From Halorientalis regularis (lineage in GTDB: Archaea; Halobacteriota; Halobacteria; Halobacteriales; Haloarculaceae): a stretch of DNA of 64,000 nt. The position numbers and the translations under genes were made by a program. The stretch is from contig NZ_JALJCL010000007.1 of NCBI RefSeq assembly GCF_023698535.1, positions 124,001 to 188,000 on the forward strand. The letters are read 5' to 3'. Below the pieces are notes generated by a model. That model ran no database searches, was not told the origin of the DNA, and worked only from the letters and a program-made list of their open reading frames with translations. Below, piece after piece: positions 58,671 through 58,954 of this stretch (position 1 is its first letter; each line of letters opens with the position of its first letter).

Positions 58671-58868
58671 GTGCGTGGGACCGGATTTGAACCACGGTCG
58701 CGTCAGAGACGCTCCCTGATTCAAATCCGACCGTGCACATCGGACCGCGCAGGTTTTGTGCGGTCGATAGTGCGTGGGACCGGATTTGAACCACGGTCGC
58801 GTCAGAGACGCTCCCTGATTCAAATCCGACCGTGCACATCGGACCGCGCAGGTTTTGTGCGGTCGATA
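58671..58868. repeat. Two identical 99-bp tandem units carrying a tRNA-Leu 3' end
   Basis: Units at 58671-58769 and 58770-58868 are identical. Each begins with the 23-bp GTGCGTGGGACCGGATTTGA..., the complement of the tRNA-Leu(GAG) 3' end which itself follows at 58869. Inside each unit are GGATTTGAA and TTCAAATCC as inverted arms and a hairpin GACCGC/GCGGTC. Looks like tandem site duplication after integration events or slippage. Confidence 0.75.
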
Positions 58869-58869
58869 G

Positions 58870-58954
58870 TGCGTGGGACCGGATTTGAACCGGCGGACCC
58901 CTACGGGACAGCGCCCTCAACGCTGCGCCGTTGGCCTGGCTTGGCTACCCACGC
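58870..58954 (-). tRNA. tRNA-Leu (anticodon GAG)
   Basis: 85-nt class II tRNA on the minus strand. Acceptor stem GCGTGGG/CCCACGC, discriminator A, anticodon stem CAGCG/CGCTG with loop TTGAGGG (GAG). A long variable arm and GGTTCAAATCC in the T arm. CCA not encoded. Its 3' end is repeated twice downstream of it (58671-58868). Confidence 0.95.

What the first reader, a model, noticed from the sequence alone, without database searches (positions are those of the whole stretch)
58671..58954. Tandem 99-bp units with a tRNA-Leu(GAG) 3' end beside the intact tRNA
Two identical 99-bp copies each begin with the 23-bp complement of the tRNA 3' end. Each contains a T-arm-like inverted segment. It suggests serial integration, tandem accretion or an unusual expansion, in parallel with the tRNA-Leu(UAG) locus.
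Basis: seen in the sequence. Interest (0 to 1): 0.5.

Follow-up and report, generated by a model that had tools for sequence, protein, structure and literature searches.

The report
Haloarchaeal tRNA-tail hairpin repeat units
The two repeated units beside this tRNA gene belong to a family, apparently undescribed, of about 100-base hairpin cassettes that sit behind tRNA genes in many salt-loving archaea, each carrying a copy and a mirror copy of its own tRNA's end, and how they arise and spread is unknown.

Summary
Two identical 99-bp units (58670-58867) lie between tRNA-Leu(GAG) and its conserved 3' flank. On the tRNA strand each is: hairpin HP1, mirror copy of the tRNA tail, core hairpin, tail copy. 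The same architecture follows tRNA-Leu(UAG) and, in all, 25 of 44 scorable tRNA genes of this genome outside one dense tRNA cluster (random stretches 2 of 880). One core class (CAGGGAG...CGACCGTGGTTC) occurs in 273 of 391 genomes of the class and in 0 of 311 other genomes of the phylum. Of 187 distinct instances, 172 follow a tRNA on the same strand, none is inverted to one, 15 have none within 700 nt. None of 7 congeners has this unit at this locus.

Serial integration by ordinary integrases is not supported, though the evidence on it is thin. Stems covary, but G-U pairs are no commoner than A-C, unlike in tRNA stems, so I favour a DNA-level hairpin cassette over a functional RNA. Neither Rfam nor the papers searched explain it, and the integron integrase model found none. 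The mechanism is inferred; neutral expansion and RNA function remain open.

The parts
58869..58954 (-). tRNA-Leu(GAG), intact; its tail (T54 to 3' end) is 58869-58889
   Evidence: ARAGORN; Rfam RF00005; tail coordinates
58839..58868 (-). Unit 1 (tRNA-proximal): first hairpin HP1
   Evidence: coordinates; folds as hairpin
58819..58838 (-). Unit 1: anti-tail, imperfect mirror copy of the tRNA tail
58791..58818 (-). Unit 1: class-a core TCAGGGAG-hairpin-CGACCGTGG
58770..58790 (-). Unit 1: tail copy, 21 nt identical to the tRNA tail from T54
58740..58769 (-). Unit 2: HP1 (identical to unit 1)
58720..58739 (-). Unit 2: anti-tail
58692..58719 (-). Unit 2: class-a core
58671..58691 (-). Unit 2: tail copy
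58607..58670 (-). Conserved 3' flank of tRNA-Leu(GAG); a similar sequence follows the tRNA directly in congener G081, which has no unit, and so marks the boundary of the array
24651..24735 (+). tRNA-Leu(UAG), intact
24736..24768 (+). UAG locus unit: HP1
24769..24785 (+). UAG locus unit: anti-tail
24786..24828 (+). UAG locus unit: core of another class
24829..24850 (+). UAG locus unit: tail copy

Best explanation
SHOWN: This is one array of a family of non-coding cassettes that follow tRNA genes in many Halobacteria. On the tRNA strand each cassette reads HP1 hairpin, anti-tail (imperfect mirror copy of the tRNA's own 3' tail), core hairpin (a few recurring classes with a variable tip), tail copy starting at about T54. 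Arrays alternate tail-HP1-antitail-core-tail. Presence, number and core class differ between related species at the same tRNA. INFERRED: the cassette works as folded DNA. A new cassette is established at the T-loop border of the tRNA tail, and its own tail copy keeps the tRNA intact. Cores can be exchanged at the T-loop heptamers that border them on both sides (one clean case). Arrays then grow or shrink by unequal exchange between tail copies; the two identical units here are such a recent duplication. The enzyme that would recognise the strand-specific hairpin is unknown. The elements persist as passengers tolerated because they leave the tRNA intact.
For: Anatomy. Genome census 25 of 44 scorable tRNAs, 45 units, against 2 of 880 random stretches. 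Class-a core in 273 of 391 genomes of the class, reversed-pattern control 0 in every listed genome; 0 of 311 outside. Orientation: 172 same strand, 0 inverted, 15 without a tRNA within 700 nt, of 187; 17 isotypes. Turnover: 0 of 7 congeners carry this unit at tRNA-Leu(GAG), 3 have no tandem unit. Core exchange: at tRNA-Ser(GGA), HP1 of two species is 0.89 identical (251 non-orthologous HP1 pairs: mean 0.62, maximum 0.88) but the cores are of different classes, 0.54 identical. Tails are isotype-specific: the anti-tail fits its own copy better than another isotype's in 230 of 260 distinct units. Stem covariation: 228 Watson-Crick pairs against 187 +/- 5 in shuffles, best of 500 being 202. Not RNA-like: A.C at least as common as G.U (HP1 101 vs 43; core 81 vs 69) while tRNA acceptor stems give 0 vs 28; triloops 58 of 97 and tetraloops 5, GAA closed by G-C pairs being a known very stable DNA mini-hairpin (PMC4686876, passages). 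Strand asymmetry: G.A mismatches far exceed C.T (193 vs 25; 234 vs 30). Tail copies nearest the tRNA are the most exact: 36 better, 6 worse, 25 equal of 67 arrays; 15, 5 and 21 of 41 after filtering, p 0.011.
Against: No recombinase has been tied to the units; the integron integrase model gave 0 of 39 genomes over its cut-off. DNA folding energy does not tell the strands apart in the window's unit (-29.7 vs -29.5 kcal/mol). With RNA energies the sense strand folds better (cores 144 of 146; HP1 89 better, 55 worse, 2 equal; variable tip 77, 20, 49), which an RNA reading would also explain. Core exchange rests on one clean case: at Arg(CCT) and Asp(GTC) core classes also differ between species, but their HP1 identities (0.67-0.68) are no higher than expected from the non-orthologous baseline. 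Orthology rests on isotype and HP1, not on synteny. The tRNA-stem control is biased towards G-U by the tRNA finder and by my own filter.
Confidence: 0.38

Rival explanations
1. Functional RNA: the unit is co-transcribed as the tRNA's 3' trailer, and the anti-tail acts as a switch that can pair either with the tRNA's own tail (misfolding the tRNA) or with the tail copy (freeing it), tuning tRNA maturation; or the unit is a stable small RNA.
For: Sense to and directly behind a tRNA gene wherever a tRNA is in reach. RNA-energy folding better on the sense strand. Predicted competing pairings: tRNA acceptor stem formed in 135 of 137 for the tRNA alone, 32 of 137 with HP1 and anti-tail, 12 of 137 with the full unit; the tail pairs with the anti-tail in 99 of 137 when the copy is absent and with downstream sequence in 43 of 137 with the full unit.
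Against: No excess of G-U over A-C in HP1, core or tail/anti-tail stems, against 28 to 0 in tRNA stems (the control is biased towards G-U). Presence is not conserved at the same tRNA in related species. Triloops rather than tetraloops. No Rfam family other than tRNA reaches its threshold. The full unit does not rescue the tRNA fold in the prediction, as the switch idea would want.
Confidence: 0.2
2. Neutral quasi-palindrome expansion: template switching at the palindromic T arm made the mirror copy, and slippage or unequal exchange between tails made the arrays; no dedicated machinery.
For: Units are identical neighbours here and nearly identical at tRNA-Lys(CTT). Stems keep Watson-Crick pairs without RNA-like wobble. 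Tail copies are direct repeats of 21-24 nt.
Against: The same core motif recurs in 74 of 86 genera although units turn over between congeners, which asks for propagation or selection. Tandem G.A mismatches persist instead of being corrected to perfect palindromes. Not seen outside the window's own order.
Confidence: 0.26
3. Attachment-site scars: each unit is the remnant of an integrative element (virus, plasmid) that entered the tRNA 3' end and lost its genes.
For: tRNA genes are preferred archaeal integration targets (PMC8371274, passages). An integrase gene lies beside a tail copy in L137; integrase-like reading frames, judged by eye, in L168 and L110. The 3.1-kb stretch in L110 ends in a unit-like core and a 21-nt tail with 2 differences (by eye), which could be read as an element with a unit at its end.
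Against: The clear case L137 shares only 13 nt exactly with the tail, L170 11; L163 and L168 share 7, not recognisable as an att core. Remnants would hardly keep one architecture in 45 units of one genome (inference). No unit found in the viral, phage and plasmid collections.
Confidence: 0.12
4. The second identical copy is an assembly artefact.
For: The copies are 100% identical and the genome is in 45 contigs.
Against: Many arrays with non-identical units exist in this and other genomes, so at most the copy number at this locus is in doubt.
Confidence: 0.04

Closest known systems
Integron attC sites and cassette arrays
   Same: Tandem units each ending in an imperfect palindrome with two inverted conserved boxes, an unpaired base and middle part and a variable terminal structure; orientation fixed; more exact near the anchor (attC features from PMC2727003, passages).
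   Different: No integron integrase over the cut-off in 39 relatives; boxes are the tRNA T-loop TTCRAAT, not the attC consensus (the latter recalled); no cassette gene in about 100 bp; the anchor is a tRNA gene.
tRNA-targeting tyrosine integrase att sites of haloarchaea (SNJ2 family and others)
   Same: Duplicates a tRNA 3' end and leaves the tRNA intact.
   Different: The one clear element beside an array shares 13 nt with the tail (L137), the units 21-24 nt; units carry no gene and add a mirror copy of the tail.
CRISPR arrays and casposon target sites
   Same: A direct repeat of about 20-24 nt duplicated at each insertion, beside a fixed leader-like anchor (resemblance recalled).
   Different: The 'spacers' are hairpins with a mirror copy of the repeat and shared cores, not unique sequences.
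t-elements (tRNA-like elements of Haloferax volcanii)
   Same: Haloarchaeal sequence elements related to tRNA.
   Different: t-elements are tRNA-like and cut by RNase P and tRNase Z (PMC4326828, passages; the original 2012 paper was not read); units give no tRNA-like fold.
Repetitive palindromic or hairpin-forming elements (bacterial REP, sponge mitochondrial RHE)
   Same: Short non-coding hairpins that multiply in intergenic DNA (RHE: PMC2800124, search listing only; REP recalled).
   Different: Units are tied to tRNA 3' ends and carry the tail of that very tRNA.

Membership tests
Integron (attC/IntI) | Integron integrase IntI encoded in the genome | tested here: not met
   TIGR02249: 0 of 39 genomes over the cut-off; 25 of 39 have weak matches, as do all 14 control genomes
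Integron (attC/IntI) | Strand-specific imperfect hairpin with extra-helical base, unpaired middle and variable tip | tested here: inconclusive
   Form matches: G.A mismatches exceed C.T, conserved arms and covarying variable tip; but DNA energies are equal on both strands of the window's unit
Integron (attC/IntI) | Cassette carries a gene | tested here: not met
   Unit length median 115 bp, range 65-281, in 267 units; no reading-frame test was made
Tyrosine-integrase att remnant | Duplicated block equals the att core of the integrating element | tested here: inconclusive
   13 nt in L137 and 11 in L170 against 21-24 nt in units; L110, L163 and L168 unclear
Tyrosine-integrase att remnant | Element of this kind found in a virus or plasmid | tested here: not met
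   only the 22-nt tRNA tail in 8 halovirus records, no unit
CRISPR array | Repeats separated by unique spacers | tested here: not met
   Identical intervening sequence here and nearly so in L007; cores shared between loci
t-element | tRNA-like fold | tested here: not met
   ARAGORN on the window and Rfam on two stretches find only the real tRNAs
t-element | Cleavage by RNase P and tRNase Z | not testable with these tools
   needs biochemistry
Known RNA family (Rfam 15) | Score over a family's gathering threshold | tested here: not met
   In the two stretches searched only tRNA passes; all other matches lie below their thresholds

The most novel reading that the evidence does not exclude
Halobacteria possess an integron-like cassette system without genes: a recombinase that reads the T-loop heptamer TTCRAAT in folded single-stranded DNA inserts and swaps hairpin cassettes at tRNA tails, each tRNA gene serving as the anchor and each anti-tail/core/tail palindrome as the recombination site.
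Probability: 0.1. Interest if true: 0.92.

Novelty: categorically new. Interest (0 to 1): 0.68.

Why it matters
A sequence feature behind more than half of the scorable tRNA genes of one archaeon, and present in most sampled genomes of its class, has no name in the resources searched. If it is a mobile cassette, it is among the smallest spreading DNA units and points to an unknown recombination activity aimed at the tRNA T arm. If it is an RNA switch, it is a new layer of tRNA regulation. Either way it sits where archaeal viruses and plasmids integrate, and it can confuse prophage and tRNA-fragment annotation. It is testable in laboratory haloarchaea.

Tried and rejected
Viral origin: the viral-contig scan gave 12 hits of a looser pattern, all without the GAATCAGGGAG arm and without a tRNA within 1000 nt upstream, hence read as coincidences. 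Phages and plasmids: nothing beyond the 22-nt tail.

RNA function was my first favourite; the G-U versus A-C test went against it, and both are reported. The 144-of-146 core result is not independent, because the class-a arms are conserved. In one search the printed G-U and A-C totals are a script error (always 0) and were not used; its Watson-Crick totals and per-pair tallies stand. One search used a poorer unit finder and was replaced. under-counted this genome because some arrays were assigned to earlier duplicate loci; one search is the clean count (one tRNA, Thr-TGT, is unscored there although searches show its array). The polarity of tail copies weakened under stricter filters.

Mended on recount: I had taken integrated elements to share 13-14 nt with the tRNA (by eye); the exact shared blocks are 13 (L137), 11 (L170), 10 (L110, within a longer imperfect tail), 7 and 7 (L163, L168). 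I had counted three core-swap cases; two have HP1 identities within the range of non-orthologous pairs, so one is left. The missing units in the C4 tRNA cluster say little: 12 of its 17 gaps between neighbours are 41 nt or less. I lowered the main reading from 0.42 to 0.38 and the novel case from 0.12 to 0.1, and raised the neutral and att rivals by 0.02 each.

Integron membership was considered and not claimed. Literature searches (open-access library only; listings and passages seen) gave no paper on such units; two were for comparison. The Haloquadratum paper PMC3119063 (passages) mentions prophage-linked partial tRNAs.

Not followed: L079 has two units behind no recognised tRNA; L163 and L170 were not checked for an integrase; no synteny test of orthology; no covariance model was built; Rfam was run on two short stretches only.

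Full report
1. The observation. The tRNA is on the minus strand at 58869-58954. Read on the tRNA strand, each unit is: HP1, a hairpin of 30 nt; an anti-tail of 20 nt, an imperfect mirror copy of the tRNA's tail; a core of 28 nt with its own hairpin; and a tail copy of 21 nt that begins at T54 and equals the tRNA tail. As single-stranded DNA or RNA it folds into two adjacent hairpins, the second being anti-tail/core/tail (z -5.4 and -6.3). The array alternates tail, HP1, anti-tail, core, tail.

2. The same thing elsewhere in the genome. A search of the own genome with the unit found a three-copy, 108-bp array behind tRNA-Lys(CTT). A pattern from the conserved core, CAGGGAG...CGACCGTGGTTC, found further ones. 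A census of tRNA 3' flanks (coordinates, DNA and the window) shows units behind 25 of 44 scorable tRNA genes outside one tRNA cluster, 45 units in all, with several core classes and some arrays mixing them. Random 700-bp stretches of the window, scored with 44 tails of this genome, gave 2 of 880. The 18 tRNAs of a cluster on contig C4 have none, but most of its gaps (12 of 17) are 41 nt or less and leave no room.

3. Distribution. Of 146 genomes of the family, 38 match a strict pattern. Of 391 genomes of the class, 273 match the looser one, in 74 of 86 genera, and the reversed control pattern matches in none of them. That the class is Halobacteria is inferred from the named hits. In a draw of 392 genomes of the phylum 53 match, all among the 81 of the window's own order; the 311 outside it have none. 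Of 124 motif instances in those 118 loci, 110 lie 39-336 nt (median 58) behind an intact tRNA on the same strand. The other 14 lie at locus edges, behind an integrated element, or without a recognised tRNA. Pooled over the loci held (L008 and up, without L212-L223), 172 of 187 distinct instances follow a tRNA within 700 nt, none is inverted relative to one, and 15 have none in reach. Seventeen isotypes are represented.

4. Turnover. At the orthologous tRNA-Leu(GAG), none of seven congeners has this unit. Three have no tandem unit, and four have a different one of about 260-400 bp (by eye) with a degenerate tRNA body. In G081 the tRNA runs directly into a sequence like the conserved flank that in the window begins after the last tail copy (58607-58670), so the two units sit cleanly between tRNA and flank. 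At tRNA-Ser(GGA) two species share HP1 (0.89 identical, against a non-orthologous mean of 0.62 and maximum of 0.88 in 251 pairs) but have cores of different classes (0.54 identical): a core exchange. At Arg(CCT) and Asp(GTC) the classes differ too, but HP1 (0.67-0.68) is within the range of non-orthologous pairs, so replacement of the whole unit is equally possible. High turnover together with a core that recurs through a whole class points to propagation, exchange or selection rather than simple inheritance. The two identical copies here are best read as a recent duplication by unequal exchange between tail copies (inference).

5. RNA or DNA? The stems are real: in 89 distinct core tips, Watson-Crick pairs number 228 against 187 +/- 5 after shuffling partners within length classes, none of 500 above 202. 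The tail/anti-tail pairing is specific to the tRNA: 230 of 260 distinct units fit their own copy better than copies of other isotypes. But the hallmark of RNA is missing. G-U and A-C mismatches are equally frequent per opportunity in the tail stem (G-C to A.C 123 against 1180 intact; C-G to T.G 36 against 374; A-T to G.T 48 against 267; T-A to C.A 26 against 153). HP1 has 43 G.U against 101 A.C and the core 69 against 81, while tRNA acceptor stems of the same loci have 28 against 0 (both the tRNA finder and my filter favour G-U, which inflates this control). The tips are mostly triloops, 58 of 97, with GAA the commonest (13) and only 5 tetraloops. GAA closed by G-C pairs is a known exceptionally stable DNA mini-hairpin (PMC4686876, passages). 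At the same time G.A mismatches far outnumber C.T (193 to 25, 234 to 30), so the strand matters. RNA energies favour the sense strand; DNA energies do not separate the strands in the window's unit. I read this as a hairpin recognised in folded DNA, with an RNA role not excluded. If the unit were co-transcribed, predicted folding of the tRNA would suffer: acceptor stem formed in 135 of 137 tRNAs alone but in 12 of 137 with the full unit, so either the trailer is removed early or the unit interferes.

6. Integrases. Some arrays may have an integrated element between the tRNA and the unit. L137 carries a 339-aa tyrosine recombinase (Pfam Phage_integrase) next to a 13-nt exact block of the tail; L170 shows an 11-nt block; L163 and L168 share only 7 nt. 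L168 and L110 have incomplete integrase-like frames (by eye). In L110 about 3.1 kb separates tRNA-Val(CAC) from a unit-like core with a 21-nt tail carrying 2 differences (by eye). The clear case thus duplicates less than the units do, but this is a small sample. No unit was found in the viral, phage and plasmid collections.

7. Comparison. The form recalls integron attC sites: two inverted boxes, an extra-helical base, an unpaired middle, a variable tip, one orientation, more exact copies near the anchor (attC features: PMC2727003, passages). But no integron integrase passes its cut-off (0 of 39) and the units are too short for ordinary genes, so it may work like an attC array and is not filed as one. 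CRISPR, t-elements and the Rfam families fail a defining feature tested here; att remnants stay formally open (see membership table).

8. Verdict. Real, widespread, apparently undescribed in the open-access library searched. What it is, by anatomy and distribution, is well supported; how it moves, and whether it does anything for the cell, is inference.

Noticed in passing
window 58607-58670 (-) and L265-L272: Element directly 3' of tRNA-Leu(GAG) in congeners: a G+C hairpin followed by GTGCAGGTGCATTCCC..TTGGGACTGCACCCACGCA, possibly a terminator or small RNA; G079 and G076 keep only something like the second part.
   Followed up: partly
L266, L267, L269, L271 (tRNA-Leu(GAG) of G078, G080, G075, G077): A tandem unit of about 260-400 bp (by eye) holding a degenerate tRNA-Leu body with a long hairpin inserted in its T arm.
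   Followed up: partly
G000:C4:112978-117203 (L211): Cluster of 18 tRNA genes on one contig, provirus-like by its compactness (not tested), without any 3' unit; most gaps are too short for one.
   Followed up: partly
L137:6730-7749 (Halobellus inordinatus YC20): Intact tyrosine integrase gene next to a 13-nt block of the tail: probably an integrated element wedged between a tRNA and its unit.
   Followed up: partly
L110 (Haloterrigena salina JCM 13891), reverse strand 4752-7900: About 3.1 kb with broken integrase-like frames and a 486-aa ATPase-like frame (by eye) between tRNA-Val(CAC) and its unit; its end carries a unit-like core and a mutated tail.
   Followed up: partly
L079 reverse strand 6750-7000 (Natronorubrum texcoconense): Two class-a units with tail-like repeats but no tRNA recognised upstream; they follow what looks like the end of a coding region.
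   Followed up: no
some 3' flanks, for example L266 downstream of the tRNA: Short hairpins with tips of the form GAAC-NNN-GTGA or GCGAAGC seem to recur also outside the units.
   Followed up: no
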